From the IMG/VR virus record IMGVR_UViG_3300047678_000431, positions 1 through 64,000 of that record: a DNA stretch of 64,000 nucleotides. The stretch is one strand, 5' to 3'. Of this stretch, positions 1 to 49,220 are shown in pieces; positions within the stretch are counted from its first letter, which is position 1; the number at the start of each line of letters is the position of its first letter. Position numbers and translations under genes: made by a program. The notes under the pieces were generated by a model, which saw only the letters and a program-made list of their open reading frames with translations, searched no databases and was not told where the DNA came from. Source of the DNA: a virus.

Positions 1-216
1 CCCCGGGCGGCGGTTCTCGATCCGACATACGATCGCGGCCTGAGCATCGAACGTGCCGTCTTCGCGCATTTCACTTATGCAAAATTTGCGCGAGGTGAAG
101 GGTTGTCGGAAACGTTTCAACTGTTGCGGCGATCGTGGATGCAGGCCGTGGCCGGTCAATCCCTCGCGTTCGACGCGTGTATGGAGACGGCGGCCGTTCT
201 CCTACAGTATTCCTAG
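1..216 (+). CDS. C-terminal end of an unidentified protein (partial)
   Basis: The first reading frame is open from base 1 to a TAG at 214-216 (71 residues) with codon use like the rest of the window. No start is visible because the gene begins before the window. The tail of the protein contains an AVFAHFTYAKFARGEG stretch and a hydrophobic end (ETAAVLLQYS). Its stop overlaps the stop of the leftward gene at 213-677 by two bases (sequence CTAG), a tight convergent arrangement that supports both genes. The family was not recognised. Confidence 0.55.
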   Translation, partial: PRAAVLDPTYDRGLSIERAVFAHFTYAKFARGEGLSETFQLLRRSWMQAVAGQSLAFDACMETAAVLLQYS

Positions 217-10100: not shown

Positions 10101-10357
10101 TCGCACGCGCGACCATGAACCTCAGTGCGAATGCGCAGATTTCGCAAACCGAAGAGATCTCCATCGGTGCGTCATCCGCGATCTCGATTACGACCGAGGC
10201 GACCATCGGTGCGGCGGCACTCATTGCGATCGTTGATCGTGTGAGTATCGGTGCGGCGATGCGTATCGGTCGCGGCAATCCGCAACACAAGGCAACGCGC
10301 CGCATTCTTTCTGTCACCATTCAACGCGACATCGAAGGCCGCACCTACTGGGTCTGA
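7187..10357 (+). CDS. Giant 14-residue-repeat protein 1, putative fibre
   Basis: 1056 residues. After about 24 residues, nearly the whole protein up to residue ~1020 consists of units of 14 residues with consensus [ST]-[IL]-G-A-[AG]-M-x-I-x-x-x-x-[TS]-x, by my reading about 70 units, many in strict register (for example SIGAGMRIVATGTT then SIGAASRIVATGTT). The C-terminal ~35 residues are different and basic (RRILSVTIQRDIEGRTYWV). There is no Cys and no signal peptide. Regular Ala/Gly/Ile spacing suggests a beta-solenoid or similar rod; this is inference. A long tail fibre or head fibre is the best guess, but it lies about 25 kb from the virion block. Confidence 0.75.
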   Translation: MPIIMLPGLDYTGFISANASSIIASTQTKTLNAAAILAKTMTQNIGAGMDIVRTTNTLIGAAMVVRATTSQTITAAAHIAITATQSMGAGMRIVRTTTTTIPAAMTIAATATRTIGAGMSVSQKLTTTIAAASVISITTSASIGAAAHIAATAHANIAAAMVILGQGNATITAGMKVSPAITATIVINAASRIAAKGSTAINAAARISVTQPMSIGAAMLIKGTGTATIGAGLAVAAKATTSINAAANIMGAITTTKSISAAMIIAASASANHMGAAALISAKVTQAAGAGAMIASTAKTSIGAAAVVVANFHQGIGAAMIVKPVTLATASMNAGMLVIATATRSIGAGARIKAKVTSTIGAASTLSATGSTSAGASAIVLATTSRTLSANLIIITSTLATVNAAATVAAKFSQTASAAAIISATGTMQSSAAAVIVQSTTLSAGAAMAVSAQSSQSIGAGMIIAATSTASIGAGALVSITTTASAGAAAIVQSTASTTIEAASQISNTVTVSMWAGSRIQKTETLAMTAAMIIQSTVTPSIGAAAVIATTVNATTGAAMAVQAQSMRTLNAGGIISQQITSSLGANLIVLGIGKQSAGAGAIVLGNGVATARAGAVIAAIGSTSIGAGMLIVGKGLATIGAASRIVTSGHMALHAAAVIAVTGVKSASAAAAISNRLMMSIGAGMTVRGKLKTSIGAAMTVQEPARMSLSAQMAVRGIGRTSIGAGMVIRPFGTTVAMIGAAMAVASETTTSIGAHAYIMQIASKTIGAGMHIVKGGNIVTILAEMYISIKVQQSIAAGMRIVATGTTSIGAASRIVATGTTSIGAGANIAMMATRSIGAASYIVTHHTQGIGAAARITARGSTSIGAGMRIVRNVSMYLYAASAISVTATKSLGAAMKIVDRERLTLGAASYITQSTSASIGAAAMIEQIVQETISAGMWIVQPGSASINAAMMILGVTHAFMQARAIIIARATMNLSANAQISQTEEISIGASSAISITTEATIGAAALIAIVDRVSIGAAMRIGRGNPQHKATRRILSVTIQRDIEGRTYWV
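7260..10260 (+). repeat. 42-bp coding tandem repeat array
   Basis: DNA period 42 bp, matching the 14-residue unit. Many units share the same bases, such as TCGATCGGTGCGG. Two neighbouring units are identical over their core (starting at 9590 and 9632, exactly 42 bases apart), pointing to recent duplication or gene conversion. Boundaries are approximate. Confidence 0.8.
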
Positions 10358-10381
10358 TTTCCTCGGAAAAGGGGTTTCGAA

Positions 10382-13243
10382 ATGCCTACCACTGCAACCG
10401 CAACAATCGCAGCCGCCGCGCAAATCGGATTCAATAACAACGGCCAATATCGCGCGGCCCTTCTCGCTGATCATCCGGTCCGCTTGTACGAACTTAATGA
10501 CGTCGGCGGACCGGCGCGCGATACATCCGGCAACAACGGTCCCTCGGGAACGTATGGTTCATCGGTCACGCAAGCGCCGAGCATTTGCCCGAGTGATTAC
10601 GGCGGTTTCAGCGCACGTATGCCGCTTGCCGCGAATACCTCATATGATGCGAATGCGATCGTTGAGTTTCCCGACGATCCGGCGATCAATTTCAACGGGA
10701 CATCGTTTTCCGTCGAGTTTATTTATTCATGGCCTTATACCGGAGCGGGTTCGCCCAATTTTGGCGGGCAAAATTGCTATTTTGTGAACTTGCAGGACGA
10801 AACCGGACTCATGGTCGGTCATCCTCCTGGTAATTCAAAAAATATCGTCAATGTGAACGGCGTGCAAGTCGCTTCGGGTATTCAAGATCTCTTTGCATAT
10901 GATCAACCGGTTCATCACGTGTTTACATATGATGCCGTCGCGCAAATGCTTTATATCTATGTCGACGGATACTTGATCGAATCCGTACCCGCTGCGCCGG
11001 GGACATTCAACTCCGGGACCGGTTTACGCATCGGTCAACGCGGCACGGGTTCGCAACCGACGCAAAACTCCGACTTTCAATACGTCTCGATCTTTAATTA
11101 CGTGTTAACACAATCGCAGGTGACAAATCACGCAAACGCCGCCGGGATCAATAATTATAGTTATACCGGCGGCGGAAGTGTTCTTCGTTCTGCCGGTGCA
11201 TCCGCAAAGATCGGCACGAACCAAGATGAAAACTATCAGCGCGCCGTCATTGCCGATCACCCTCTTCGGTATTATCGCTTAAACGATACGAATTCGACCG
11301 CACTTGACACATCGGGCAACAATGGCCCCTCGGGAACGTGGGGAACTTCAGTTCTGCATGGCGGGAGTATTGTCGCCTCGGATTATGTCGACGGTTCGGC
11401 GCAATTCCCGTCCTCCGGCAATACCTCGCCCGATCCGAATTCGATCATCACGTTCCCGGAAGATCCGCCTATTCAATTCAACGGGACATCGTTTTCCATT
11501 GAATATTTTTACACGTGGAACGCCGATAATTCGAATTTCAGCGGACAAGAATGTTCCTATATTAACCTCGAAGACAATACTGGCGTTCGCGTCGCATTTC
11601 CGCCGAGTCAATCGCTACAAACGAAGGTATATTTCAACGGTGCGGTCGCATTGACGACCGGGCGCGGCGCATATATCGGCGTGCCGAATCATTGCGTCAT
11701 CACGTATAATGCGTCGACCTCTTTACTGAGTTATTATCAAAACGGATTACTGCAATCGACGGCAACCGTCAACGGCGCGACGTTTAACTCCGGGATCGGA
11801 TTGCGATTAGGTCAACGCGGTACCGGGACGCTGCCCGCGCTCAATGGCGACCTTTCCGACGTCGCGATCTATGGATCGGCCCTCTCTGCGACGCAAGTGC
11901 AGAACCATGCAAACGCCGCTGGCGTCAATAGTTACCCCGGCGGCACGGTCACGCGATATGTCGGCGCCGCGATGGCGATTGCGACGCATTCTTTAGGAAC
12001 AACCTCGATCAATGCCGCGATGATGATCAATGTGTCGGGAAATGCGACTATCAACGCCGCCGCGCACATCGTCAGTAAAGGCATGACATCAATCGGCGCC
12101 GCTTCTCGCATTTCGGTTCCCGCTGCGACGAAAACCATCGGTGCGGCAATGGCCGTCGCGATCAAATCGAGCGCGTCGATTCTTGGTGAGATGATTGTCT
12201 CGGCGAAGATCACGCAATCAATGGGCGCGGCAATGCGCGTCACGAAAACGGTGCAGCCGACAATCGGTGCGGCGATGGCCGTGCAACAATCGACGTCGCA
12301 GTCGATGCGCGCGAATATGGTCGTGCGCATGCCCTCGAGTATGACAATCGGTGCGGCAATGCATGTTGCGGCCTTGCCGATGACCACCCATATCGGTGCG
12401 GCGATGGCGATTGTCGATGTCGGGTACGCGCAAATCGGTGCGGGTATGCGGGTACTCGGGGTCGTGAAGAAAACGATCGGCGCGGCGATGCGAATCTCCG
12501 TGGGGAATACCCTCTCGATGAATGCCGGTGCCTACGTCGTGACGGCGGTCCAGCAAAGTATCGGCGCTGGTATGTGCGTGAAGGCGAACTTCCATGTCTT
12601 CATCGGGGCCGCAAGTCGCATCGTGAACTCGAACACGAAGTCGATCGGTGCGGCGATGTTGATCGGGGTGCCGGGCACGCTCGGTATCATCGCAGAAATG
12701 CACGTCTCGAAGGTTGCGAAGGTGTCGATCGGCGCGGCGATGTTCATATATGGGACCGTTCGTCAAACGATCGGTGCCGGAATGTCGATCATCGCAACGA
12801 CGCAAAAGTCGATCGGTGCGCGTGCAAGCGTCGTGAACGTCGCAACACAAACGATCGGTGCGGCGATGAACGTCATTCCGACGAACTACGTGCAAGGCGG
12901 CGCCGGGATGATCGTTGCACAAACGGTGCAGCAGTCAATCGGCGCGGGCATGATGACCTTTCAAATCGAGAACACGTTCCGCGTTCTCCCGGCAAACATG
13001 CGCATCATCGCAAACGGCACGATCTCGATCGGTGCCGGTATGATGATCGCCTTCGAAACCGGGGTCATGTCCATCGGTGCCGGGATGATGATCTTTGCAC
13101 CGTTCGTTCCGAACCTCGCGGCGAATATGTACGTCGTGAATATCGGTTCGATGTCGATCGCGGCGGGCATGCGGATCGGCCGTGTGACAACGAGTTTCGT
13201 GAATCGCGAACTCTACGCCGAGCCCTATTACGGTCAAGACTAA
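10382..13243 (+). CDS. Giant protein 2: two LamG-like domains plus 14-residue repeats
   Basis: 953 residues. Residues ~20-260 and ~285-515 are two copies of a concanavalin-A-like (LamG/laminin G type) lectin domain, seen as YRAALLADHPVRLYELND ... DTSGNNGPSG ... INFNGTSFSVEF ... GLRIGQRGTG ... NHANAAG, each repeated. From ~525 to ~935 the 14-residue repeat of the preceding gene returns (SIGAAMFIYGTVRQ, TIGAGMSIIATTQK), about 28-30 units. The last ~20 residues differ (NRELYAEPYYGQD). LamG-like domains bind glycans, so this is probably the receptor- or glycan-binding partner of protein 1. It starts 24 bases downstream of that gene. Confidence 0.75.
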   Translation: MPTTATATIAAAAQIGFNNNGQYRAALLADHPVRLYELNDVGGPARDTSGNNGPSGTYGSSVTQAPSICPSDYGGFSARMPLAANTSYDANAIVEFPDDPAINFNGTSFSVEFIYSWPYTGAGSPNFGGQNCYFVNLQDETGLMVGHPPGNSKNIVNVNGVQVASGIQDLFAYDQPVHHVFTYDAVAQMLYIYVDGYLIESVPAAPGTFNSGTGLRIGQRGTGSQPTQNSDFQYVSIFNYVLTQSQVTNHANAAGINNYSYTGGGSVLRSAGASAKIGTNQDENYQRAVIADHPLRYYRLNDTNSTALDTSGNNGPSGTWGTSVLHGGSIVASDYVDGSAQFPSSGNTSPDPNSIITFPEDPPIQFNGTSFSIEYFYTWNADNSNFSGQECSYINLEDNTGVRVAFPPSQSLQTKVYFNGAVALTTGRGAYIGVPNHCVITYNASTSLLSYYQNGLLQSTATVNGATFNSGIGLRLGQRGTGTLPALNGDLSDVAIYGSALSATQVQNHANAAGVNSYPGGTVTRYVGAAMAIATHSLGTTSINAAMMINVSGNATINAAAHIVSKGMTSIGAASRISVPAATKTIGAAMAVAIKSSASILGEMIVSAKITQSMGAAMRVTKTVQPTIGAAMAVQQSTSQSMRANMVVRMPSSMTIGAAMHVAALPMTTHIGAAMAIVDVGYAQIGAGMRVLGVVKKTIGAAMRISVGNTLSMNAGAYVVTAVQQSIGAGMCVKANFHVFIGAASRIVNSNTKSIGAAMLIGVPGTLGIIAEMHVSKVAKVSIGAAMFIYGTVRQTIGAGMSIIATTQKSIGARASVVNVATQTIGAAMNVIPTNYVQGGAGMIVAQTVQQSIGAGMMTFQIENTFRVLPANMRIIANGTISIGAGMMIAFETGVMSIGAGMMIFAPFVPNLAANMYVVNIGSMSIAAGMRIGRVTTSFVNRELYAEPYYGQD
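11960..13190 (+). repeat. 42-bp coding tandem repeat array in protein 2
   Basis: The same 42-bp/14-residue unit as in the preceding gene, about 28-30 copies by eye, with the same favoured codons (ATC GGT GCG GCG ATG). Boundaries are approximate. Confidence 0.75.
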
Positions 13244-14844: not shown

Positions 14845-16743
14845 GTGAAAAGATTGCTTTCATGCGTTCTTGCGTGCGTGTATGCGTGCGTTCTTGCGTC
14901 TTGTGATAACACGCCGACTCCGCAACCGATCGTCGTAAGCCCGACGCCCGTCGTCTCGGCCGCCCCGATCCCGACGCAAGTACCGACGGCCACGCCGACG
15001 CAACCGCCGACGCAACCGCCGACGCCCGTTCCGACAATCGCGCCGACTCCGATTCCGACGGTTGCGCCGACCATTGCGCCGACGCCCATTCCGACGATTG
15101 CGCCAACCATTGCGCCGACCATCGCCCCGACGCCGGTGCCGACAATCGCGCCGACGCAGAGTACTACCCTCGCGCCGACCCCGGTTCCCACCGTGGCGCC
15201 TACCGTGCGCCCGACGCCGATCCCGACGGTTGCCCCGACGCCGGTGCCGACTGTTCGACCGACGCCGATTCCGACGGTTGCCCCGACGGTTGCGCCGACA
15301 CCGATCACGATCATCATCTCGCAGGGAACACCGACGCCGTCCCCTATGTCTGCCCCTACTGGAACGCCGACCTCTGTTCCGACTACCTCGCCGATCGTAG
15401 GGGCGGCACCGGCACACTGGGCGAGTTTGTACGGGGAATTCGATTGCACGACGGCCGCGAATTACACGCCCGCGCAGTGGGCCGTTCTCGGGCAATATAT
15501 CAATATCAGCGACCGCGTTTGCGCGCCTGAGATTGCGAGTGCCGAAGCCGTCGGCGTGACATCGGGCACCTACACCGATCCGACGCTGCCGTGTACCGCG
15601 ACGTCGACGACGTCATGTTATAGCTTCAATGAGGCGTCGAACTATTCGTCCGCATCATGGGCGCGGACGTGTGGCGGCGCGCAAATCTACCTCGGCGACC
15701 CAAGTGACGGGCACAATACCCGCACGAACCCCGGCGCGCGGTCGCTCGTGACGGATTTTCAAAACTACGCCGTTTTGCCATTTAAGCAAGCGGGCGGCCA
15801 GTTTATCCTCGCCGATAATTTATACAAACCGACGGCCGACGGGGAATACACCGGCAGGCCCGGGGGAACGCCGGTGAGCGGTTCGGCGGCTTGGTGTAAT
15901 TACACCGATGCAACGTGGATCGCGAATTATACGACGTTCTTTTCAGCCCTTTCGCTGCCGGTCATGTATAACGGCGACACCGAGCCCGATCTCGCGGCGA
16001 TCACGGCGTCGCCGCAAGTCAAATGGGGGATGTGCGAAGACTGTCTCTCATTCGGATTCAACGAATCGGCGGACCCCGGTCGCCTCAAAGAGCGCCCGCC
16101 GTTCTGGCAAAACGAACTCGGCGCGGGTTTGGTGACGATGGGAAACGGAAAATCCTGGTTCGTTTTCACGCACGGATACAACGAACCAAAAAACAACGAC
16201 GTTCAGAACTATGTCCTTGCGTCATTATTATTGATTTATGAGGACGGAAAAACCGGGTGGATGATGGACGGTGACACGAAGAGCGGCATCAATACGCCGG
16301 TCGGGGTGTACTTCGTTCCGACGCAACCTCTTGTCGCATCAAATGCGATCACCTCGATCGAATCGCTTAACGTCGGGGGCGCGTATGTGCGCGAGTATGC
16401 CGCGTGTTATCTTTACGGCAAAAGCGTGGGCGCATGCGCGGCCGTCGTCAACCCGAACCCCTCGGGATCGGTGCCGATGCCGAAGCTCTCTCGCGCGTAT
16501 GCCGGGTCGGTTTCGATTGATAATTGGTGCGGCACGGCCTCGGCGCCGTCAAACCTTGGGGGTTCGTATTGCTATAAGGGCGCGACGACGCAATGGGGCG
16601 ACACGGGGAGCGTCTCGATCGTTCCGGCCGTCGTTCCGGCCGTTATTCCACCGGCCGAAGCGTACATCTTCACACAGAACGCAAAATCCGGCGGGTCGCG
16701 CCGTCACCATACACGGCGGCGACTGATTCAAGGGCATTCCTAA
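14845..16743 (+). CDS. Lipoprotein with Pro/Thr stalk and globular C-terminal domain
   Basis: 632 residues, GTG start behind GAGG. The N-terminus is a lipoprotein signal with a lipobox LASC (Cys20). Residues ~22-185 are a Pro/Thr/Ala stalk of PTPIPTVAPT-type repeats. The C-terminal ~440 residues form an enzyme-like domain (WASLYGEFDCTTAANY, GGQFILADNLYK, LPVMYNGDTEPD, TGWMMDGDTKSG) that looks like a TIM-barrel glycosidase-like fold, perhaps of the poorly described GHL15 type; this is tentative. It ends in a short basic tail. The GCGT repeat encodes part of the signal peptide (Cys-Val-Leu-Ala-Cys-Val). It would anchor a cell-surface enzyme or binding protein on the infected host. Confidence 0.65.
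   Translation: MKRLLSCVLACVYACVLASCDNTPTPQPIVVSPTPVVSAAPIPTQVPTATPTQPPTQPPTPVPTIAPTPIPTVAPTIAPTPIPTIAPTIAPTIAPTPVPTIAPTQSTTLAPTPVPTVAPTVRPTPIPTVAPTPVPTVRPTPIPTVAPTVAPTPITIIISQGTPTPSPMSAPTGTPTSVPTTSPIVGAAPAHWASLYGEFDCTTAANYTPAQWAVLGQYINISDRVCAPEIASAEAVGVTSGTYTDPTLPCTATSTTSCYSFNEASNYSSASWARTCGGAQIYLGDPSDGHNTRTNPGARSLVTDFQNYAVLPFKQAGGQFILADNLYKPTADGEYTGRPGGTPVSGSAAWCNYTDATWIANYTTFFSALSLPVMYNGDTEPDLAAITASPQVKWGMCEDCLSFGFNESADPGRLKERPPFWQNELGAGLVTMGNGKSWFVFTHGYNEPKNNDVQNYVLASLLLIYEDGKTGWMMDGDTKSGINTPVGVYFVPTQPLVASNAITSIESLNVGGAYVREYAACYLYGKSVGACAAVVNPNPSGSVPMPKLSRAYAGSVSIDNWCGTASAPSNLGGSYCYKGATTQWGDTGSVSIVPAVVPAVIPPAEAYIFTQNAKSGGSRRHHTRRRLIQGHS
14862..14903. repeat. GCGT-type dispersed repeat, copy b
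   Basis: GCGT units with two TTCTT steps, lying in the signal-peptide codons of the lipoprotein gene and read there as Cys/Val/Ala/Leu. Confidence 0.75.
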
Positions 16744-31063: not shown

Positions 31064-31504
31064 TCAAAACGGGATCTCCCCGTCAATCTCATCGTCGCTC
31101 GGTTGGTATTGCGACGCATACTCGCTCGCGGTTGCATGCTCACGATGTCCCTGATCGTAACTCGATCCTCCCGCTGACCCGCTTTCTTTGCGGTCGAGCA
31201 TTTGCATCGTGTCGATGACGATCTCGGTTGCCTTGCGTTTGTTTCCGTCTTTATCTTCGTAGTTACGGATGACCAGGCGCCCCTCGACGAGAACGCTCGA
31301 TCCTTTTTTCAGATACGTGTTGCACGTCTCGGCGAGTTTTTCCCAAGCCGTAATGTCAATGTATGTCGTTTCGTCGCCGTTTTTCGTGCGGCGATTGACG
31401 GCAAGGGTAAACTTTACGACCCCGGCGCCTGACTGCACGTACCGAATTTCGGGATCACGCGTGAGGTTACCGACCAAGATGACGCGGTTGAAACTTCCGG
31501 CCAT
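31064..31504 (-). CDS. ssb: Single-stranded DNA-binding protein
   Basis: 146 residues with a full OB fold typical of bacterial-type SSB: FNRVILVGNLTRDPEIRYVQ, GAGVVKFTLAVNRRTKNG, YIDITAWEKLAETCNTYLKK, GSSVLVEGRLVIRNYEDKDG. The low-complexity linker (GSAGGSSYDQGH) ends in the acidic tip DDEIDGEIPF that recruits partner proteins. It is coupled to the upstream gene by TAATG. It protects ssDNA in phage replication and recombination and would work with the RecT-like protein at 62153. Confidence 0.92.
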   Translation of the reverse strand: MAGSFNRVILVGNLTRDPEIRYVQSGAGVVKFTLAVNRRTKNGDETTYIDITAWEKLAETCNTYLKKGSSVLVEGRLVIRNYEDKDGNKRKATEIVIDTMQMLDRKESGSAGGSSYDQGHREHATASEYASQYQPSDDEIDGEIPF

Positions 31505-31806
31505 TATCCGTTTTTCTCCAATTTCTCCGGCATGCCGCGAAATACGCGGACCCCTTGCTCGTCTTCTAGGCGAATAAGTACGGCGTCCCGTTGCATGCCG
31601 CGCGCCTTGATTGTAATACCGACAACGCCGTCCGCGTTTGGGATCTCCACGAGGTCGATCTCGATACGATGGCGGTCGCCGCCCTGGTCGCGAAAGCTAA
31701 ACTCGGCGCTTGATTTCTCGTGCGAGTGAATGACGGAGGTCGACAAGTCGATCTCGGTCGGACCCGCGACGGTGATATATTTCGGCTCGCTCGTATCGGT
31801 ACCCAT
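31504..31806 (-). CDS. Unknown protein upstream of ssb
   Basis: 100 residues from ATG 31806 behind AAAGGAG. Beta-rich (EPKYITVAGPTEIDLSTSVI, FSFRDQGGDRHRIEIDLVEI). No family was recognised. Translational coupling with ssb suggests a role in replication, but nothing else supports that. Confidence 0.55.
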   Translation of the reverse strand: MGTDTSEPKYITVAGPTEIDLSTSVIHSHEKSSAEFSFRDQGGDRHRIEIDLVEIPNADGVVGITIKARGMQRDAVLIRLEDEQGVRVFRGMPEKLEKNG

Positions 31807-31857
31807 GCCGCTCCTTTAGGTCTTCGGGGATGTTAAGTTTTACATCGGCGAAATTCT

Positions 31858-32139
31858 TTAGACCATGAGCGATGCGCGCGTTTTTTTTCCGATTACACGA
31901 GGCGCATCGCTCTCGTGCATCGCCTGAAGTTCGACGTCCTCGATACAGTATTGCAGACTCTCCGGGCGACCGGATTTTGCATATTCGGCCTGAAGCTCCC
32001 TTGCTTGCCGGACAACCTGCGGCGGGTAGCGCCGCTCGGCAATTTGATCCGGCTTAGGCGAAGACCGCGCGATCTCATAGCTCGCGAATCCAAGACCCCC
32101 GATTCCGACTGAACCTGCGAACAAGGCGAATACACGCAC
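31858..32139 (-). CDS. Small single-span membrane or exported protein
   Basis: 93 residues from GTG 32139 with GAGGG upstream. The N-terminus (MRVFALFAGSVGIGGLGFAS) is a hydrophobic anchor or signal, followed by a charged helical part (PPQVVRQARELQAEYAKSG) and a Cys. It diverges from the papain-like gene at 32224. Confidence 0.5.
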   Translation of the reverse strand: MRVFALFAGSVGIGGLGFASYEIARSSPKPDQIAERRYPPQVVRQARELQAEYAKSGRPESLQYCIEDVELQAMHESDAPRVIGKKTRASLMV

Positions 32140-32223
32140 GAAACGAGCCCTCGTTTGATAAGTAGGCGCCGCAGCACATTGCGCGTTTTTTATGCACTTT
32201 ACCTCTAGGCATCCGAGGTTTTC

Positions 32224-32967
32224 ATGAGATCGTACGGCGTCAAGTCTCGGGACTTTCATACCGAGCGTTTTGGCCTTTTCGTCCCGGATCGTCCGGCCGT
32301 CGGATTACTCCCGACGACGGTTGAATATCAATATCTCTTTTCGCCCGTTGACGATCAAGGCGATTTTTCCAGTTGTATTTTCCACGCGAGCAAAGGCATT
32401 CTCGACGCGATCATTCGGAAGCGATCGAAGGTCGATCCGGGTGTATCTTGGCGCGCGTTATATTCCGCAACGAAGCATCTGTTCGAATCGAATGATCTTG
32501 CCGATGACGGTGCGGTTATCGAACACGGCCTCAATTTGCTCATGCAATACGGATACGTCGAAGAATCCGCGTGGACCGATGTCGACGTCACCCCCGACAA
32601 TGTGTTGACTCCGGTGCCCGATGATCTCTTCGTGAAAACCGATACGGTCACAAGTATTCTTCGCGTCGGTATCAACGAAGAAAGCTTTTGTCACGCGTTA
32701 TATGGTCACGGCCCGATTATCATCGGCGTGAATTGGCCGAGTGCGTGGGAATTTCCAACCGATGCGAGCGGCATTCTTGATCCGAATGTCTCCGACATTG
32801 CGGGCGGTCATTGTGTCGTCATCACCGGGTATCGCCGACAGTCGAACGTCACGTATTATCACATTCGCAATTCGTGGGGCACTGCATGGGGTGATCGCGG
32901 TTATGGGTGGATGCCCGCAAGCGGACTCGGGTTCGTCACAAACGCCTACACCGTTCAAATTCCCTAG
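32224..32967 (+). CDS. Papain-like cysteine protease (family C1)
   Basis: 247 residues with an intact C1 active site: DQGDFSSC gives oxyanion Gln45 and nucleophile Cys51; GGHCVVITGY gives His196; IRNSWGTAWGDRGYGW gives Asn216. There is no signal peptide and the usual inhibitory prodomain is absent; only ~35 residues precede the domain. Start supported by position and frame. It ends 17 bases before the portal gene, at the head of the virion operon, where a maturation protease could act. But an HK97-type prohead protease is also present (37695-39041), so this one may cleave tail, host or virion entry proteins instead. Confidence 0.85.
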   Translation: MRSYGVKSRDFHTERFGLFVPDRPAVGLLPTTVEYQYLFSPVDDQGDFSSCIFHASKGILDAIIRKRSKVDPGVSWRALYSATKHLFESNDLADDGAVIEHGLNLLMQYGYVEESAWTDVDVTPDNVLTPVPDDLFVKTDTVTSILRVGINEESFCHALYGHGPIIIGVNWPSAWEFPTDASGILDPNVSDIAGGHCVVITGYRRQSNVTYYHIRNSWGTAWGDRGYGWMPASGLGFVTNAYTVQIP

Positions 32968-32984
32968 CACGAAGGAGCGCCGCG

Positions 32985-34721
32985 ATGCCGTCATTGATTT
33001 CCTCAATACAAAAAAGCGTCGCGCGCATCCTCGCCGGTCCCGACATTAACATTCCGCGTAAAGGTGCGATCTCTCCGGTTTCAATCAAACAAGATCGTCA
33101 GTTTATGGACGGCGGTCGGATCGAGCCGCGCAACATCATTGCGCGCAATAACCTGCAATCGCTTGCCGAGCGTGATGATGTGATCGTCGCCCTTCGCCGC
33201 GTGTTGCGCAACGGTATCGGAAATCTCAAATGGCACATAGTCCCCGATATTGACGCAATCGAAGCCGACATCAAGCGATGGAAATCGACCGTTGCGCTGA
33301 ACCTTGCCATGCCGGGCATGCACATGACGTTTCATCCGCAGGCGATGACGCATGAGTTTTATGCTGGTGCAACCGGTGAGTTGCGCGATCTTCTCGTTTC
33401 TGAAGCTGAAACAGGTGCCGAGTTCGAAACCTCGACGCGATTGCATCAATTTTTCGAAAACATTCTCGCCGCGCATAGCGTGATCGCGGAAAGTCACGTC
33501 GCCGAGGTGAAGTCCCTCTTCGATAAACCGAACGCAAATGACACCTGGAGAAGTTTCATTTCGCGGGTTGTTGATCAGTTGTCGCTCTTCGATGCCGCTG
33601 CAATCGTGAAGAATCCGATGATGAACGAAGATCGCATCGGTGAGATCTATCTTCTGCCCGGCGAAGACGTGCGCGTCTATCGTCGGCGCGATCTTCTCCA
33701 ACCGATTCCGCCCTTTACGGCGTTTGATTGGTCGGTCAATGATCGGATCTTCGCGTATTTCAATGCGTTTGAAATGTGCTATATTACCGCGAACCCGCAG
33801 CAGAACGGATACGGGAAACCGCCGCTTGAGGCGCTCGTACAACAAATGCTCGGATCAATTTCCGGTGATCAGTATCTTCTCGAATTCTTCGCAAATAATA
33901 ACATGCCCGCCGGTATCTTTGACCTCGGCCCGAACGTTGATCAAGGTGAACGAGACGCAGTCGAAACGCACGTGAACAATCAAGCGCGCAAAGGTTTGCG
34001 GCGCATTATGTTCGTGTCGAACATGGATGGCGTCAAGGGATTTATGCCCATGCCGCAGCAGCCGATGAAAGATAATGACATCGTCAACATGTTCGACATG
34101 TGGACGAAGCGAAAAGCTGCCGTCTTTGGGCTTTCTCCGAATGACATCGGACATACGCAAGATATGCATCTTGCAAATGCGGATAATCAAGCCGAACTGA
34201 CGCAATCTCGCGGCATTGATTCGATCGCCAAAGCAATCGAGAACGAACTCAATGTCCATATCGTCAAAGGTACGATGTGGCGCCGTAATAATCCCGAAGA
34301 CGTCAATGATCCGACCGGTATTCCGATGCCGGTCTTTCCCTTTCAAGACGTACGATTCGAATTTATTACCGGCGAGAAGGATGAGAACGCCGATCTCTCT
34401 GATCGTGATCTCAAACTTTGGGGCATGGGCGCCCTGTCGACAAACGAGATTCGCAAGTCGCATGGATTGCCGCCGGTCCCCGGCGGTGATACGCATGTCG
34501 TCAATCAGCAGGTGACGATGAAAGTCGATGACCTGCCGAATCTTCCCGCGCCGACGCAAATGGACACTGAGGTCCGCTTGCCCGATGGCCGCGAGCGTGA
34601 TGAACGTCCAGGCGCAAACGCGCAGCAAAACGAGCAAAGACCGCCGACGCCGTCACCGGAACAGGCGGAAAAAAACCTTACCGCGTTAGCTCATAAGCTC
34701 GCGCAGATCGTCAAAGGGTGA
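32985..34721 (+). CDS. Portal protein
   Basis: 578 residues from ATG 32985 behind AAGGAG. It has the length and layout of HK97/SPP1-type portals: RNIIARNNLQSLAERDDVIV, LPGEDVRVYRR, NPQQNGYGKPPLEALVQQ, FANNNMPAGIFDLGPNVDQG, RKAAVFGLSPNDIGHTQDMH, followed by a Pro/Gln-rich tail. It forms the dodecameric DNA channel at one capsid vertex. The family assignment rests on the GYGKPPLEAL and FGLSP motifs and on the downstream neighbours (MuF-like, protease, capsid). Confidence 0.85.
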   Translation: MPSLISSIQKSVARILAGPDINIPRKGAISPVSIKQDRQFMDGGRIEPRNIIARNNLQSLAERDDVIVALRRVLRNGIGNLKWHIVPDIDAIEADIKRWKSTVALNLAMPGMHMTFHPQAMTHEFYAGATGELRDLLVSEAETGAEFETSTRLHQFFENILAAHSVIAESHVAEVKSLFDKPNANDTWRSFISRVVDQLSLFDAAAIVKNPMMNEDRIGEIYLLPGEDVRVYRRRDLLQPIPPFTAFDWSVNDRIFAYFNAFEMCYITANPQQNGYGKPPLEALVQQMLGSISGDQYLLEFFANNNMPAGIFDLGPNVDQGERDAVETHVNNQARKGLRRIMFVSNMDGVKGFMPMPQQPMKDNDIVNMFDMWTKRKAAVFGLSPNDIGHTQDMHLANADNQAELTQSRGIDSIAKAIENELNVHIVKGTMWRRNNPEDVNDPTGIPMPVFPFQDVRFEFITGEKDENADLSDRDLKLWGMGALSTNEIRKSHGLPPVPGGDTHVVNQQVTMKVDDLPNLPAPTQMDTEVRLPDGRERDERPGANAQQNEQRPPTPSPEQAEKNLTALAHKLAQIVKG

Positions 34722-35196: not shown

Positions 35197-36090
35197 ATGC
35201 ATACACTCGAATTCGACCTCGGCATGATTGCGATTAAGAGTCGCAAGCCGGTTCGCGAAGTCATCAAAGCGTTGCAAGATCACTGGAATCTTCCGCGATA
35301 CGCCCCAAACCTGCGCAAGGCGGCGGGGGATGACGACGGTTCGAGTACGGCTGGAAATCATGACATCCCGGAGATCGGACGACAAGAGGCCGCTTTTTAT
35401 AACGCTCTCACCGCCGGTCAAAAAGAGGCGTATGCCGCCATCCGGGAACTTGTCAATCGTTTGCATGAAAGCAAGGGCGGATGGGCCGGGATTAACCCCT
35501 GGGACATCGACGAACCGATTGATCAGTGGAAAGACAACGCATTTTATGAACTCGCAACGCATCCGATGCGTGCGTATATGGTCGGTCAGATGCTTGCGAC
35601 CGATGCAATCGACAATGGCCTCGCGCGGCCAGTTTTGCCGACCGACACGCAAGCGATCGAATTCTTAAATTCATATGCGTTCAACGAGATTCAATCGGCA
35701 TTCGATAACATGAAGTCGGATCTTCGCAACGCGCTCATTCAGGGGATGCAACGCGGGGACAACCCGCGCGAGGTTACGCGTGCGCTTCATGACACGATCA
35801 GCGGATACGAAATCGACTGGGATCTCATCGCAATCACCGAAACCGCGCGCGCCGAGAGTCAAGGCCGACTTAACGAACTTACCGATCAAGGTTATGAGTA
35901 CGCAATCGGATCAAGTGCGCACGACTCGCGCACCTGCGAAGATTGTTTGCGCCTGGTCAACGATGTGGTCGTCGATGTGAAAGATACTGTCGGCGTTTCA
36001 AATTATGGGCGCAAAAAAGCTGACTGGGTGACATGCATACCGCTACATCCGCGATGCCGTTGCGTATGGCTCCCCTACTCGCAACCGTGA
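35197..36090 (+). CDS. MuF-like head morphogenesis protein (SPP1 gp7-like)
   Basis: 297 residues. Near the C-terminus the MuF core is clear: AITETARAESQGRLNELTDQ, HDSRTCEDCLRLVND and HPRCRCVWLP, with the Cys residues of the domain. The N-terminal part is helical. Such minor head proteins bind the portal and are packaged inside the capsid, sometimes ejected. Its position after the portal is typical. Confidence 0.82.
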   Translation: MHTLEFDLGMIAIKSRKPVREVIKALQDHWNLPRYAPNLRKAAGDDDGSSTAGNHDIPEIGRQEAAFYNALTAGQKEAYAAIRELVNRLHESKGGWAGINPWDIDEPIDQWKDNAFYELATHPMRAYMVGQMLATDAIDNGLARPVLPTDTQAIEFLNSYAFNEIQSAFDNMKSDLRNALIQGMQRGDNPREVTRALHDTISGYEIDWDLIAITETARAESQGRLNELTDQGYEYAIGSSAHDSRTCEDCLRLVNDVVVDVKDTVGVSNYGRKKADWVTCIPLHPRCRCVWLPYSQP

Positions 36091-37694: not shown

Positions 37695-39041
37695 ATGCAA
37701 TTACAGCATCGCCGATTTTTCATTCCCTTTGCTAAGGAAAAGATCGACAAAGAACGTCGTATCGTCTGGGGCATTGCGCAAGAAGAATCGGTTGATACAC
37801 AAGACGACCGCCTCATGTACGATGCGTCAGTCGCCGCGTTTTCTGCGTGGGCCGGAAACATTCGCGAGCAACACGATGATAGTAAAGCCGTAGGTCGAGC
37901 GATTGAGATTATCGCCGATCCAAAAGCGAAGACCATCACCGTCGGCGCGCGTATTTCGCTCGGTGCCGAGGATACGTGGCAAAAGGTTCTCGATGGTACG
38001 CTTACCGGTTATTCAATCGGCGGCGTTCTTCAGGAATTTGCGCTCGACTATGATCCTGAATATCAGAGAAATATTCGCAACGTGACAAAGTACGAACTGT
38101 ACGAGCTTTCGCTCGTCGACGTTCCGGCGAATTCAGGTTGCGTGATTACCGCCGTGCAGAAGCGCGGTACACATCTCGTCGCGACCGACGTGCTTGCGCA
38201 CAGTCTCGGCGCGCTAACTGCGAGCGACGTGCTCAACATGAAGAAAGCGAGTCAACCCATGCCAAACGCAAAGCGCGCCAAGGTACAAACGATCGTCAGC
38301 TTCGCCAAATCACTCGGCGCGAACGATGAGGTTATTCTTCTTCGCACAAGCGACCTAAGCAAAGCAAAAGACGGAAGCATCGTCTTGAAGTCGACGGCTC
38401 CCGTCTCGGGCATTATTCGCAAAGATGATCTCGACGCCGACGGTTATACCGATGAATCCGATGACACAAGCAGCGAGAACGAACCCGAACAAATCGACTT
38501 TGAGCAACATGCCGAGAACGCCGCAAAGATGCATAAAGCATTTTGCAAGATGGGCGGCATTGACGACAACGAAGGCCATTATCTCGAATCGACCAAGGAA
38601 GACGGCGATGACGATATGGCTATGGGTGACGAGCCAAAGGATGACCCGTCGGGCATGAAGTCGCGTCGTTTACGCCGCGAAAAAGCGCGTCGCATCGAGG
38701 CCGCAAAATCGGCAACGCAAAGCAAACTTGAAGCGCAAGTCGCGGCGTTGAGCGATCAAGTTGTTGCCTTGACGAAGACCCTTTCCTCCGGCGGATCAAC
38801 GACAGCCGTGACCCCGCGCGTCGGCGCCGGTCAAGCTGGTACCGTGGTCGAGAAGGGCGGCGTCGCCGTCGCGAATTCGCAAGAAGCGCGCCTCGCCGAA
38901 CTCAAATCCAAGGCCGCCGAGATGGTCAAGTCCGGTTCTAAAGGTCTTACCCAAAAAGATCGCGCCGAACGCGACGCAACGCTTAACGAGATTCTATCTC
39001 TTGAGACGGCGATCCGCGCAGGTTTCGACCCGAAAGCCTAA
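37695..39041 (+). CDS. HK97-type prohead protease fused to a scaffold
   Basis: 448 residues. The N-terminal ~165 residues are an HK97-family prohead protease: NIREQHDDSKAVGRAIEI (His60), TGYSIGG (Ser107), YELYELSLVDVPANSG. The long C-terminal part is acidic, then basic, with coiled-coil stretches (SKLEAQVAALSDQVVALTKT) as in scaffold proteins. The fused scaffold is cleaved by its own protease during capsid maturation. It lies immediately upstream of the major capsid gene, as expected. Confidence 0.82.
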   Translation: MQLQHRRFFIPFAKEKIDKERRIVWGIAQEESVDTQDDRLMYDASVAAFSAWAGNIREQHDDSKAVGRAIEIIADPKAKTITVGARISLGAEDTWQKVLDGTLTGYSIGGVLQEFALDYDPEYQRNIRNVTKYELYELSLVDVPANSGCVITAVQKRGTHLVATDVLAHSLGALTASDVLNMKKASQPMPNAKRAKVQTIVSFAKSLGANDEVILLRTSDLSKAKDGSIVLKSTAPVSGIIRKDDLDADGYTDESDDTSSENEPEQIDFEQHAENAAKMHKAFCKMGGIDDNEGHYLESTKEDGDDDMAMGDEPKDDPSGMKSRRLRREKARRIEAAKSATQSKLEAQVAALSDQVVALTKTLSSGGSTTAVTPRVGAGQAGTVVEKGGVAVANSQEARLAELKSKAAEMVKSGSKGLTQKDRAERDATLNEILSLETAIRAGFDPKA

Positions 39042-39157: not shown

Positions 39158-40219
39158 GTGTCAACATCGCAATTAACTGCGGATTATGTGCTTCAGAGCC
39201 TGCAAGGCGTCGATGCTCTTATCCGTAAAAGTGCAACCCCCGTTCTCGGCCTCGAAGTCGTTCGCCAGGATTTAGAGAACGAACTCAAACTCGCTGCAAA
39301 CCTTGATACGCCGCTTCGTAATCGAATGAAGCGTATCAAAGGCGAAGGCAAAGCGCACGCATTCTATCAGCTGCAATCGAATCTCGATTCGACCGGCCAA
39401 GTTCGATTCTTAGGAACCGACGCAACGAACGGCGTGTTCGCAAAGGGCGGCCTTCCGAACTCTGTCGATGCGCAATACAATTACATCGCCCGGCCGTACG
39501 CAAACGTCGGCGACGTAATGACAATCCCGTTCCAAGACATTGCGCAAGATGCTTCGTATATCGAAATCAAGGCGCAGCAGAAACGCGTGAAGATGCTCAA
39601 CACCGGGTTGATTGAAGAATACTTAATCATCAACGGAAATAGCGACACGACAAGCGGTCTTGAGTTCGACGGTCTGCTCACTCAGATCTTAAACGGCGGA
39701 TATAATATCCTCGACGTGAGTGCCGCCGGTGGTTCGCCCCTGCGATACTCTTTGATCACGCAAGAGCTTTTCCGCATCAAGAAGGCGGGCGGACGTACGC
39801 GCGCGCTGATCATGTCTTACTCGATGAAAGCAGCGTTGACTGAGCTTCTCGGTTTGTACTACGCAATTCGCCAAGTAGGCACCGGCGGCGGTACGAACTA
39901 CGCGGGCGGCTTCTCGACCGAATCGTGGGACTTCGGAACCGGATCGGTCGACCTCATTGACGATCAGTATATGATCCCCGATCCTGTGACCGGTCTTGAG
40001 CGCATCATCTTCATCGACGATGAAACGCCCGATGACAAGAACGGCGGAAACGTCATTCAAATGGTCGACGTCGATCCGATTCATTATCAGGATCTTGCGA
40101 CCATCGCGACCGCAGAACGCGGCATCGTGTATGAAACGACTCAGCTGATGATCGGCATCCTGCAATTTCAGGGCCTTATCACCGGATTCAATCTGTCGTT
40201 AACTCCGACGATCGCCTAA
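39158..40219 (+). CDS. Major capsid protein
   Basis: 353 residues, GTG start behind GGGAG. The fold is HK97-like by context and pattern: an N-terminal arm and helix (ELKLAANLDTPLRNRMKRIK), a beta domain (EEYLIINGNSDTTSGLEFDG), and a C-terminal part (TAERGIVYETTQLMIGILQF). It sits between the protease-scaffold and the connector and is flanked by hairpin terminators on both sides, consistent with high expression. Confidence 0.8.
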   Translation: MSTSQLTADYVLQSLQGVDALIRKSATPVLGLEVVRQDLENELKLAANLDTPLRNRMKRIKGEGKAHAFYQLQSNLDSTGQVRFLGTDATNGVFAKGGLPNSVDAQYNYIARPYANVGDVMTIPFQDIAQDASYIEIKAQQKRVKMLNTGLIEEYLIINGNSDTTSGLEFDGLLTQILNGGYNILDVSAAGGSPLRYSLITQELFRIKKAGGRTRALIMSYSMKAALTELLGLYYAIRQVGTGGGTNYAGGFSTESWDFGTGSVDLIDDQYMIPDPVTGLERIIFIDDETPDDKNGGNVIQMVDVDPIHYQDLATIATAERGIVYETTQLMIGILQFQGLITGFNLSLTPTIA

Positions 40220-43680: not shown

Positions 43681-45273
43681 ATGGGGATCTTTTCTTTCAA
43701 CGGCCAGAACGTTTATGCGCCGCAAGTTCTTGTACGCACGGAGATCGGCGCGAATCGCGCGTTGACGTTGCTTCCGAACGGTGTCATCTGTTTCGTCGGC
43801 GCCTCCGACGGCGGTCGGCAAAACGGGATATATCAATTCAATGACCTACCATCCGCGCAGCGTCTACTACGATCGGGCGACTTGCTCGATGCAATCGTCG
43901 CCGCCGTAGGCGAAGGTGCGAGCGCCGGTTTCGTTGCCGTGGTCGCGAACACGAAGACGAGCGCATCGAGTACGATCGACGGGTCGACCGGTGAAGTCGC
44001 GACCTTATCTTCGGGCGATCAAGGATTCTACACGAACTCGATTTCATATAAGATCGCCGCCGGAACAAATAGCGGTTTTGTCTTCACGCTCACCTATCTC
44101 GATCAGAACAATAACACGATCACCGTCGGCGGCCCGGGTACCGCATACGATAATCTCGTCGACATGGTCGCATTGCAGACGCTGCTCGTGAATAATTCCG
44201 TTGTCACGCCTCCGGCATCGACGAACTTGCCTCCGGTTGTGACGTTGACCATTACGACAAACGGTGTTCCGAGTAGCACGGTCGGATTCGTGACCCTGGC
44301 GGGCGGCACCGGCACCGGTACCGATGCGCTGACGCAACCGGAGGTCGAAGCAGCCGTTGACGAGCTTGCAGACGTCCCCTTCGACATCGGCCATCTTGTG
44401 AAGTGCTATAGCTTCGCGATGCATAATTACGCCGACACGTTCGGCGGTCAGAAGATTGCGCCGTTTGGAAAGTTGCGCCGGTGGATTCATCAAGCGCCGC
44501 TTACCGGCGCCTCGGCAACGAATTCAAAGGCGGTCAATTCAGAGGCCGTCGCAAACTCCGTCATCGCGGCCGCGAACGCGATCAATTCGATTCGTTCGAG
44601 TTCGATGGTGCAGCAGGCACTCGTTTACAATAGCGGCACCGGAAAGCAGGCGTGGATGGATTTCGCGCCGCTCGTGTGCGGACGTGCATCCTTCGTCGGC
44701 GCAAATGACAACTGGGGACCGGCCTCACCGCTCACCAAGGTCGCGTTTCAAACCGTCCTCGATGTCGATTATGTTGCGCTTGCCACAACCGGCGACGTCG
44801 ATCGCGCACTTGAGGCGGGCGGATGGATATTCGAACGGAATAGCCGGGTCGCGACGCTTGGTTCCGTGCAGACGATTCAGTCGGTTACGACCGCACCGGT
44901 CGACCCGAACACGGGCCGTCCTTGGTTGTATTCCGAGTTCTCGATCGTGCGCGTTGCCGACGCGGTTCTTGCAAACGTCAAGGCCACGATTGAAACGCAA
45001 ACGCCGCGCGCAATCGGCGGCGGTAATACGCCGAAGACGATGGCCGCGATCCTCTCTGATGTCGTCGACGTGCTCGAAGCGGCGAAAGATAATCAATGGA
45101 TTATCTCTTATGATCGGTCCTCGATCACGATCAGTACGATCGGCAACCTTGGCGATGCCGACATCGTCAATTATTCAATGGTACCGACGCCGCCGCTCAA
45201 TCATATCGGCGTCACGCAAACGCTTCTCGCCTTCTCCGCGCAATTAACTGCCGGGAATACGGTCAGCAGCTAA
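43681..45273 (+). CDS. Tail sheath protein
   Basis: 530 residues behind AAAGGAG. It has the usual sheath traits: an N-terminal region (FNGQNVYAPQVLVRTEIGAN), a 'TNSISYKIAAGTNSG' beta region in the middle, and the conserved end of the core (GGWIFERNSRVATLGSVQTI, FSIVRVADAVLANVKATIET). A sheath means the tail is contractile. It is followed by a terminator and the tube gene. Confidence 0.82.
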   Translation: MGIFSFNGQNVYAPQVLVRTEIGANRALTLLPNGVICFVGASDGGRQNGIYQFNDLPSAQRLLRSGDLLDAIVAAVGEGASAGFVAVVANTKTSASSTIDGSTGEVATLSSGDQGFYTNSISYKIAAGTNSGFVFTLTYLDQNNNTITVGGPGTAYDNLVDMVALQTLLVNNSVVTPPASTNLPPVVTLTITTNGVPSSTVGFVTLAGGTGTGTDALTQPEVEAAVDELADVPFDIGHLVKCYSFAMHNYADTFGGQKIAPFGKLRRWIHQAPLTGASATNSKAVNSEAVANSVIAAANAINSIRSSSMVQQALVYNSGTGKQAWMDFAPLVCGRASFVGANDNWGPASPLTKVAFQTVLDVDYVALATTGDVDRALEAGGWIFERNSRVATLGSVQTIQSVTTAPVDPNTGRPWLYSEFSIVRVADAVLANVKATIETQTPRAIGGGNTPKTMAAILSDVVDVLEAAKDNQWIISYDRSSITISTIGNLGDADIVNYSMVPTPPLNHIGVTQTLLAFSAQLTAGNTVSS

Positions 45274-46883: not shown

Positions 46884-49220
46884 ATGGCTGAAGCGATTGT
46901 CAAACTCGCGATCGCGGACGCTGCGACGGCTCGCATTCGCACGATTGCCGGTGAACTCAAAGACCTTGCAAAAGCGGCAAAAAGTGCCGGTATGCCGGAC
47001 GCGGCCGTCCTCGGACGAGGCGCCTCGCAGTTGCGCAATGTTGCGGACAACTTCGGTTCGGCAAAACGTGAGGCCGACGCCGCCGCTGGCGGATTCTCGA
47101 AGGCGAAAGAAGCTCTCGGCGCGTTTACGAATTCTGCCGGTCTTGGTTTTGCGAAGAGTTTCATCGGTCTTGGTGGCGCGGTTGCGTTTGCGGCCGCTGC
47201 CGGTAAGGTCATCGCTGATTCAATACGCCTCGCATCGGAATTTGAACGCGTATCGCAGCGCGCAACATATTCCCTTGCATTAGGTCGCGGAAATCTTGCG
47301 GCGCAAGTGCAGCAGTTGCAACGCGCGTCGATGGGTTACTCGGCGTATGGCATGAACGGCATTCAGGCCGCCGAGATGATCGGGACCTACGGACAGGCAT
47401 CCGGTGCGACACAAGGTCAGTCGATTGCCGCCGGACGGGGCATCGCGACGTTCTCGCGCATCATGGGCATGGACCCGAGTGTCTACGCCGGGCAAATGGG
47501 CCTTCTCTCGCAATATGCGGGAAAAGACGTCGACGCGAATTCCCGCGCCATTTTCGGCGCGGCGCAATCGGCTGGTGATGCCGGTCGGCGTCCGACGGAG
47601 TTGCTCGGAAACGTTGTCAATCTTTTGACGCAAATTCAGGCATCGAACCCATACGGGAAAGATGGATTGAAATCGGCTCTTTCCGAAGTTGTCGGGATTT
47701 CGAATCTCGGTGGTTTCTATCAATCAACGCAAGGTCAACAAAACGCGATGGCAGGTGCGAACGCACTCGGTTCATCAATCGGCGGAAGTCCATACCTTAC
47801 GCGCCTTGCGTTGCGTGCCGGTTTGAGTCTTGAAGACATCCAAATGGGCACCGGCAACATCGCCGACATCTCAAAGATCACGCAAGCGATGTATAAGGAC
47901 ACCGGCGGAAATCGTGCGATCATGGGCGCGCAGTTTTCGAAGATGGGTATCACCGGAAATAACGGCCGAGCGTTGCTCGATTGGGCGATGGCGCATCAAG
48001 GCAATCTCATGGGCGCATCGAGTCCGATGGCGCCCGCCGCCGTGCAAAAGGCCTTAAAGCAGTACCAGGATTCTATTCCCGGTCAGCAAGACCGCATCAA
48101 AGCGAAGTTCGAAAACGGCGAGATCACCGCCGGTGACGCAATCCTCAAGGCAATCATTCCAAAACTCGCGGCGTTGACGGATGCTTTCTCGAATTTCGTG
48201 CATACCTACCCGGTCGCTATGGGCGCGGTCGCTGCCGGTCTTGCGGCCGTTGCGCTCGCTCTTGCATTGCGAGGCAAAGGCGGCCCGGGGCTACCGAGTC
48301 TTCCCTTTGGGGGGAAACCTCCTATAATCCCGGGGGCTGGCGGCGCGGGAGCAGCTGCCGCCGACGGTGCGGCGGGCGGCGGTGTGATTTCAACCGTTGC
48401 CGGTTTTGTATTAAAGCGACTCGTGCCCGTTGTCGGCCTGGTCTTGGCGTTGCGTGGTAATACGGAAACGCAAGCGGAAGATGATTCAGCAATCGCGCAA
48501 GATTCTGCGCGTCGCGATAAATCATTTCGCATGCACCTGAATTCTCCAAGTAGCTCGAAGATAGATCTCAAACGATGGCTGTATGCAATTCGCTCGCGGG
48601 AGTCGGCGAACAAAGCGCATCCGTATGGCGATTATGGCGTCGTCAATAGTATCGGGGCGATGGGTGCCTATCAGTTTATGCCCGACACGCTCATGGGCGG
48701 ATACGATTCAAAACACGTCTGGCATAATGGATATGCGCAGAGCATGGACCCGAAGCTCCTGCAAAAGCTCGGGCGCGCAGGGTTCGCAAAACATTTCCTT
48801 GCCGATCACGACATGCAAGACCGTTATGCCGCGAACATGATACAAAACGGGTTCGCGCAAGGCGTCCGCAATCTTCACGATTACGGTGCGTATCATCTCG
48901 GGGGATATGGCGGCCTCCTAAATCTGCGGCGTGGTCGCGGTGACGATCCGAGATATGGTGACGGTCAGTCGACCTTGAACCAAGAGGGCGACGCGATGGA
49001 CTACGGTTACGCGCACGCTCCTTCGCAATTCATCTCTTATCAGGCGCCGAGTGCTGCGAAATCAAACGCGCATCATCCGGCACATCAAAACGGTCAACAT
49101 CATTCGGCCGCAACCGTTGCGCCCGGTCACGCACATGTCACGGTTCCGGGTGGTCATAAGATCAAGCTCACCGCAACGCTTGAGCCGTCACGTACCAAGG
49201 CAACAACCTATCGCAATTAA
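46884..49220 (+). CDS. Tape measure protein with C-terminal lysozyme-like domain
   Basis: 778 residues. Helical N-terminal half (KDLAKAAKSAGMPDAAVLGR), hydrophobic segments at ~425-450 (PVAMGAVAAGLAAVALALAL), and an SLT-like domain from ~565 to ~690: WLYAIRSRESANK (Glu573) and GAMGAYQFMPDTLMGG, followed by a GGYGGLLNLRRGR stretch. It ends in a His-rich tail. It sets tail length and carries a wall-cleaving activity for DNA entry. It is short for a tape measure. Confidence 0.8.
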   Translation: MAEAIVKLAIADAATARIRTIAGELKDLAKAAKSAGMPDAAVLGRGASQLRNVADNFGSAKREADAAAGGFSKAKEALGAFTNSAGLGFAKSFIGLGGAVAFAAAAGKVIADSIRLASEFERVSQRATYSLALGRGNLAAQVQQLQRASMGYSAYGMNGIQAAEMIGTYGQASGATQGQSIAAGRGIATFSRIMGMDPSVYAGQMGLLSQYAGKDVDANSRAIFGAAQSAGDAGRRPTELLGNVVNLLTQIQASNPYGKDGLKSALSEVVGISNLGGFYQSTQGQQNAMAGANALGSSIGGSPYLTRLALRAGLSLEDIQMGTGNIADISKITQAMYKDTGGNRAIMGAQFSKMGITGNNGRALLDWAMAHQGNLMGASSPMAPAAVQKALKQYQDSIPGQQDRIKAKFENGEITAGDAILKAIIPKLAALTDAFSNFVHTYPVAMGAVAAGLAAVALALALRGKGGPGLPSLPFGGKPPIIPGAGGAGAAAADGAAGGGVISTVAGFVLKRLVPVVGLVLALRGNTETQAEDDSAIAQDSARRDKSFRMHLNSPSSSKIDLKRWLYAIRSRESANKAHPYGDYGVVNSIGAMGAYQFMPDTLMGGYDSKHVWHNGYAQSMDPKLLQKLGRAGFAKHFLADHDMQDRYAANMIQNGFAQGVRNLHDYGAYHLGGYGGLLNLRRGRGDDPRYGDGQSTLNQEGDAMDYGYAHAPSQFISYQAPSAAKSNAHHPAHQNGQHHSAATVAPGHAHVTVPGGHKIKLTATLEPSRTKATTYRN

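What the first reader, a model, noticed from the sequence alone, without database searches (positions are those of the whole stretch)
32224..32967. Complete papain-like protease directly upstream of the portal
All four active-site residues (Gln45, Cys51, His196, Asn216) are present and spaced as in family C1. C1 proteases are rare in tailed phages, and this one opens the virion operon although a separate HK97-type prohead protease is encoded. It could be a second maturation protease, a packaged internal protein, or an anti-host factor.
Basis: partly seen in the sequence, partly recalled or inferred. Interest (0 to 1): 0.78.

Follow-up and report, generated by a model that had tools for sequence, protein, structure and literature searches.

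The report
Phage xylellain-type protease beside portal gene
A bacterial virus carries an intact papain-like protein-cutting enzyme as the first gene of its particle-building operon; the enzyme family is already known in such viruses, but its job here, most likely an accessory attack on the host rather than shell maturation, is untested.

Summary
ORF 32224-32967 (+, 247 aa) is a true family C1 peptidase: PF00112 E=1.4e-15, confident AlphaFold model (pLDDT 91), best solved relative xylellain 3OIS (TM 0.84). Gln45, Cys51, His196 and Asn216 align with columns invariant in 120 relatives. It is the only C1 gene in the 85 kb myovirus record, begins the rightward head/tail operon, ends 17 bp before the portal gene, and coexists with an XkdF/S78 prohead protease (37695-39041).

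Xylellain-type C1A acquisition by tailed phages is published (PMC10380794). Placement is patchy: tail-fibre clusters, beside small membrane or lysis genes, and several head modules. One relative fuses MuF head protein, C1 and an ADP-ribosyltransferase (L082). The exact order C1-portal was found nowhere else; this C1 is very divergent (at most 31% identity).

Best reading: a long-resident accessory protease co-made with the head and host-directed, possibly capsid-delivered. A second maturation protease is possible but less likely. New member of a known kind.

The parts
32224..32967 (+). Papain-family (C1A, xylellain-type) cysteine peptidase, 247 aa; Gln45, Cys51, His196, Asn216; no signal peptide apparent
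32985..34721 (+). Portal protein, 578 aa, starts 17 bp after the C1 stop with AAGGAG upstream
   Evidence: PF04860 3e-23; PHROG 12 6e-30; sequence
35197..36090 (+). MuF-like minor head protein, 297 aa, no effector domain detected
   Evidence: PF04233 3.1e-11; PHROG 115 1.1e-21
37695..39041 (+). S78/XkdF-type prohead protease with long scaffold-like C-terminus, 448 aa
   Evidence: PF04586 1.2e-6; PHROG 9427 9.5e-38; TIGR01543 below cut-off
39158..40219 (+). Probable major capsid protein (SU10-like, weak match)
   Evidence: PF17236 6.4e-5, just under the cut-off; PHROG 752 5.5e-5
43681..45273 (+). Tail sheath; contractile-tail phage
   Evidence: PHROG 279 2.7e-25
31858..32259 (-). Divergent gene facing the C1 gene; longest ORF 133 aa (a start at 32259 would overlap the C1 start by 36 bp), the shorter start at 32139 is likely; one hydrophobic segment
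   Evidence: no Pfam family

Best explanation
The gene encodes an active-looking xylellain-type C1A cysteine endopeptidase, of the kind published as acquired by phages from bacteria, that has been resident long enough to share its neighbours' base composition. It is the first gene of the late rightward operon and is made in the cytoplasm together with the portal. Cys51 would attack a peptide bond, with His196 as base, Asn216 orienting it and Gln45 forming the oxyanion hole. Most likely it is an accessory, host-directed protease, not the capsid maturation enzyme: it cuts one or a few host proteins, either late in the infected cell or after delivery with the DNA from the head/portal region. Shown here: fold, catalytic residues, gene order, the separate prohead protease, the patchy placement in other phages, and one MuF-C1-ADP-ribosyltransferase fusion. 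Inferred: enzymatic activity, late co-expression, host target, delivery.
For: Intact catalytic tetrad and fold. GC 0.531 and GC3 0.589 match the portal gene (0.528, 0.598) and the window mean (0.552, 0.617), so it is not a recent insertion. A separate prohead protease is present. Phage C1 genes sit in unrelated places: with tail-fibre and glycosyltransferase genes (L014, L015, L018, L024, L044, L073), beside lysis genes (Gordonia Aleemily, Thermoanaerobacterium THSA-485A), and in head modules (L013, L028, L070, L086). Viral and cellular C1 are intermixed in the tree (at least 6 forced label changes). Patchy peptidases are argued to be host-directed while maturation peptidases track virion type (PMC7824862). 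L082 has MuF, C1 and ADP-ribosyltransferase in one 1032 aa ORF, also found in two more contigs; papain-like peptidases were already listed with MuF capsid-borne toxin systems (PMC3482391).
Against: No substrate, expression or proteomic data. The nearest gene is the portal, so a virion substrate is plausible. The one phage with C1 whose virion proteome I could read about (XacN1) encodes a C1 peptidase that is not among the lytic enzymes reported in its virions (PMC5852040), which speaks against packaging as a general rule. The unusual residues around Cys51 (S49, I52, F53) could lower activity. L082 is not a close relative of this C1 (under 30% identity).
Confidence: 0.45

Rival explanations
1. 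A second virion-processing protease: it trims the portal, MuF or another head protein during assembly, next to the S78 enzyme that removes scaffold.
For: Immediate linkage to the portal gene; cytoplasmic, no signal peptide apparent; in L086 the C1 gene overlaps the portal stop by 4 bp and is followed by an exonuclease-like gene, a scaffold-like gene and the major capsid gene; jumbo phages are proposed to carry additional processing peptidases (PMC7824862).
Against: The phage already encodes a prohead protease. C1 is not tied to one portal or capsid type. In five records with a Pfam portal the C1 lies more than 20 kb away (L054, L061, L067, L074, L079). The exact C1-portal order was seen nowhere else.
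Confidence: 0.22
2. Envelope-directed accessory enzyme: it helps lysis, or entry, by cutting envelope proteins or peptide cross-links.
For: C1 lies in lysis cassettes in Gordonia phages and beside a lysozyme in THSA-485A; the Alicyclobacillus MMB025 protein with a C1 domain is annotated endolysin; small membrane or secreted genes are enriched within two genes of viral C1 (33/119 against 55/417, odds ratio 2.5, uncorrected p=4e-4); BFVD matches include proteins annotated peptidoglycan-binding and N-acetylmuramidase.
Against: In this phage an amidase-like gene and a small membrane gene are near 59-62 kb (read by eye; no family match), 27 kb from C1; the query has no signal peptide, membrane segment or wall-binding domain; the enrichment test does not correct for relatedness.
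Confidence: 0.17
3. Catalytically weak or non-proteolytic homologue kept as a binding or structural protein.
For: Ser49, Ile52 and Phe53 replace nearly invariant small residues beside Cys51; one of the longest branches in the tree (2.71).
Against: All four catalytic residues and the NSWGxxWG motif are kept, which a purely structural protein need not keep.
Confidence: 0.08

Closest known systems
Xylellain (PDB 3OIS), short bacterial C1A peptidases
   Same: Same fold (TMq 0.84), same catalytic tetrad, best sequence match in PDB, short single-domain form
   Different: About 21% structural-alignment identity; phage late-operon gene; altered residues next to the catalytic Cys
Xylellain-type C1A peptidases of Caudoviricetes (PMC10380794; PHROG 16701)
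   Same: Phage-encoded short C1A; PHROG match 4.8e-16
   Different: At most 31% identity to any relative found, alone on a long branch; directly upstream of a portal
MuF capsid-borne polymorphic toxins with papain-like peptidases (PMC3482391, PMC5576092)
   Same: C1 of the same Pfam family in the head/portal module; L082 fuses MuF, C1 and ADP-ribosyltransferase
   Different: Here C1 is a free-standing gene and the MuF protein has no effector domain
HK97/XkdF-type prohead proteases (S78)
   Same: Protease gene in a phage head module
   Different: Different fold and clan; this phage has one separately at 37695-39041

Membership tests
Peptidase family C1 (papain), subfamily C1A | Profile match over the curated cut-off | tested here: met
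   58.4 bits against 20.7, residues 39-230
Peptidase family C1 (papain), subfamily C1A | Ordered Gln, Cys, His, Asn catalytic residues | tested here: met
   Q45, C51, H196, N216 in invariant columns
Peptidase family C1 (papain), subfamily C1A | Papain fold | tested here: met
   pLDDT 91 model; PDB matches at E down to 1e-16
Peptidase family C1 (papain), subfamily C1A | Thiol-protease activity blocked by E-64 | not testable with these tools
   needs biochemistry
Xylellain-type short prokaryotic C1A | N-terminal YGWxxDxPDxRDxxY and LGSCTAxA motifs | tested here: inconclusive
   Consensus; the query keeps YG but loses most of the DxPDxRD motif, and reads FSSCIFHA at the Cys
Phage prohead maturation protease | Match to a known prohead-protease family (S78, S49, S77 or U9 type) | tested here: not met
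   Only C1 and PHROG 16701 match
Phage prohead maturation protease | Cleaves head proteins | not testable with these tools
   needs virion mass spectrometry
MuF polymorphic toxin | Fusion to a MuF domain | tested here: not met
   Separate genes at 32224 and 35197; fusion seen only in L082
Endolysin | Peptidoglycan hydrolase or wall-binding domain, or lysis-cassette position | tested here: not met
   No such domain; head-operon position

The most novel reading that the evidence does not exclude
The protease is loaded at the portal/MuF end of the capsid and injected with the DNA, where it cleaves a host protein early in infection or releases a co-packaged effector: a free-standing counterpart of the MuF-C1-ADP-ribosyltransferase fusion in L082.
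Probability: 0.2. Interest if true: 0.65.

Novelty: new member of a known kind. Interest (0 to 1): 0.38.

Why it matters
Papain-family proteases recur in uncultivated tailed phages, and I found no report giving any of them a tested function. Their repeated presence in head, tail-fibre and lysis modules suggests a versatile accessory enzyme. A case beside the portal, read together with the MuF-C1-ADP-ribosyltransferase fusion, makes capsid delivery of a papain-like protease a concrete hypothesis to test.

Tried and rejected
Close relatives: IMG/VR scans with portal, capsid, terminase and a baseplate-region protein gave none; a DNA pattern for the query's own DQGxFSSC motif gave none; the genome search does not draw relatives for virus records. 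Recent horizontal insertion was rejected on composition. Defence-system membership: no PADLOC match. NCBIfam: no match for C1. A single conserved genomic partner for phage C1 was rejected: PHROG counts of neighbours are scattered, at most 4 members per family. A promoter scan of 31700-33100 found no sigma-70-like site, which says little for an unknown host. Placing the query in a tree clade was not possible: long branch, no starred set holds it. A local search for head genes near C1 in the cellular loci found none, with low-sensitivity seeds.

Full report
1. What is there. The ORF at 32224-32967 (+) encodes 247 aa. It matches Pfam Peptidase_C1 with 58.4 bits (E=1.4e-15, cut-off 20.7), PHROG 16701 'peptidase' (4.8e-16) and, among solved structures, xylellain 3ois (5.8e-12). 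No other C1 gene is in the 85,173-base record. AlphaFold on an alignment of 120 sequences gives pLDDT 91 and pTM 0.90; Foldseek finds papain-family enzymes with E down to 1e-16 and xylellain with TMq 0.84, and phage, mimivirus-like and other viral C1 proteins in BFVD. Gln45, Cys51, His196 and Asn216 sit in columns invariant across the alignment. This is far beyond chance.

2. Its own oddities. Next to Cys51 the protein reads FSSC-IFHA, whereas viral and cellular relatives almost always read LGSC-T[AG]xA: position 49 is Gly in 76 of 80 viral rows, position 53 is Gly or Ala in 77 of 80. It is at most 31% identical to any relative and forms a singleton with an end branch of 2.71. It may be less active or have altered specificity; this is inference.

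3. Surroundings. Genes to the left (31064-31504 and neighbours) run leftward; C1 is the first rightward gene, and head and tail genes follow to about 60 kb: portal 32985, MuF 35197, S78/XkdF-type protease-scaffold 37695, SU10-like capsid protein 39158, sheath 43681, a tape-measure-like protein 46884. The gap to the portal is 17 bp, with AAGGAG before the portal start. Terminase-like genes lie elsewhere, at 78508-80767 of the record. GC and third-position GC of C1 match its neighbours, so it is not a fresh insertion.

4. Is it rare? In GenBank phages, yes: three tblastn queries together hit about 28 of 50,697 records, 15 of them one Prevotella Lak group. That short xylellain-type C1A genes were acquired independently by Myoviridae and Siphoviridae is already published (PMC10380794). 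Viral and cellular rows mix in the tree, with at least six label changes forced by starred branches; the tree was a quick one with long branches and is used only for this.

5. Where phage C1 genes sit. (a) Tail-fibre, lectin, collagen and glycosyltransferase clusters: L014, L015, L018, L024, L044, L073, L076, L078; L018 fuses Laminin_G to C1 and L014 fuses C1 to collagen repeats. (b) Lysis regions: Gordonia Aleemily, just after lysin A genes and before the holin, THSA-485A beside a GH25 lysozyme; across the viral loci, small membrane or secreted genes are more frequent within two genes of C1 (33/119) than five or more away (55/417; odds ratio 2.5, p=4e-4, uncorrected, relatedness not controlled). 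(c) Head modules: L086, portal overlapping C1 by 4 bp, then exonuclease-like, scaffold-like and capsid genes; L070, terminase, portal, one gene, C1; L028, portal, two genes, C1; L013, C1, terminase genes, portal, MuF. Pfam portals were found in 10 of 79 records; C1 is within 7 kb in four (L013, L028, L069, L086), more than 20 kb away in five, and one (L056) is ambiguous. No other record shows C1 immediately upstream of a portal.

6. The most telling relative. L082 carries one ORF of 1032 aa with MuF (201-313), Peptidase_C1 (462-665) and an ADP-ribosyltransferase exoenzyme domain (881-1024), downstream of a portal-like gene and flanked by two further genes that look like ADP-ribosyltransferases (read by eye). 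The same ORF recurs in two more contigs at 100%, so it is not a one-off assembly join, though these may be the same virus. Papain-like peptidases were already listed with MuF systems predicted to be packaged in the phage head (PMC3482391), and MuF proteins bind the portal and are proposed to be delivered with DNA (PMC5576092). So a C1 of this family can be part of a head protein. It does not show that the window's free-standing C1 is.

7. Which function? Maturation of the head is already provided by the S78/XkdF-type enzyme, and a protease that hops between modules and phages is what is expected of a host-directed enzyme (argument of PMC7824862). The jumbo phage XacN1 encodes a C1 peptidase, but the lytic enzymes reported in its virions were chitinase, lipase and an M23 peptidase (PMC5852040), so packaging is not general. 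I therefore favour an accessory, host-directed protease co-made with the head (0.45), with capsid delivery as its most novel form (0.2). A second virion-processing protease stays open at 0.22, an envelope or lysis aid at 0.17, a weakened homologue at 0.08.

8. Limits. No close relative could be found, so conservation of the gene order and selection on the gene could not be tested. Locus neighbourhoods rest on simple gene calls and on contigs picked by the search. The host is unknown. All functional statements are inference.

Noticed in passing
L082:7729-10827 (+), also L174 and L175: Single 1032 aa ORF joining MuF, Peptidase_C1 and an ADP-ribosyltransferase domain; a motif like [FM]NPxHDExGxFAT occurs before the ADP-ribosyltransferase parts of this ORF and of the next gene, perhaps a targeting or processing signal.
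   Followed up: partly
L045:6259-6780, L070:5169-5645, L074:9459-9914, L084:9493-9966: Secreted proteins with a similar start (signal peptide, then [IVA]F[GK]x) directly next to C1 in four phage contigs; possibly a recurring partner gene (PHROG 3545 is the commonest upstream neighbour family, 4 members; not checked that these are the four).
   Followed up: no
window 7187-13243: Two very long ORFs (1056 and 953 aa) made largely of a short repeated motif (...SIGAAMxI...); repeat-built possible fibre or surface proteins.
   Followed up: no
window 14845-16743: 632 aa protein with a lipoprotein-like start and a long Pro-Thr-rich repeat (PTPVPTIAPT), outside the structural operon; resembles host-like secreted proteins.
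   Followed up: no
window 46884-49220: Tape-measure-like protein whose C-terminal part reads like a lysozyme or transglycosylase domain (by eye, not tested).
   Followed up: no
window 1-60 and last 60 bases of the 85,173-base record: The record's first and last 60 bases each recur elsewhere in it, consistent with terminal redundancy or a complete circular map.
   Followed up: partly
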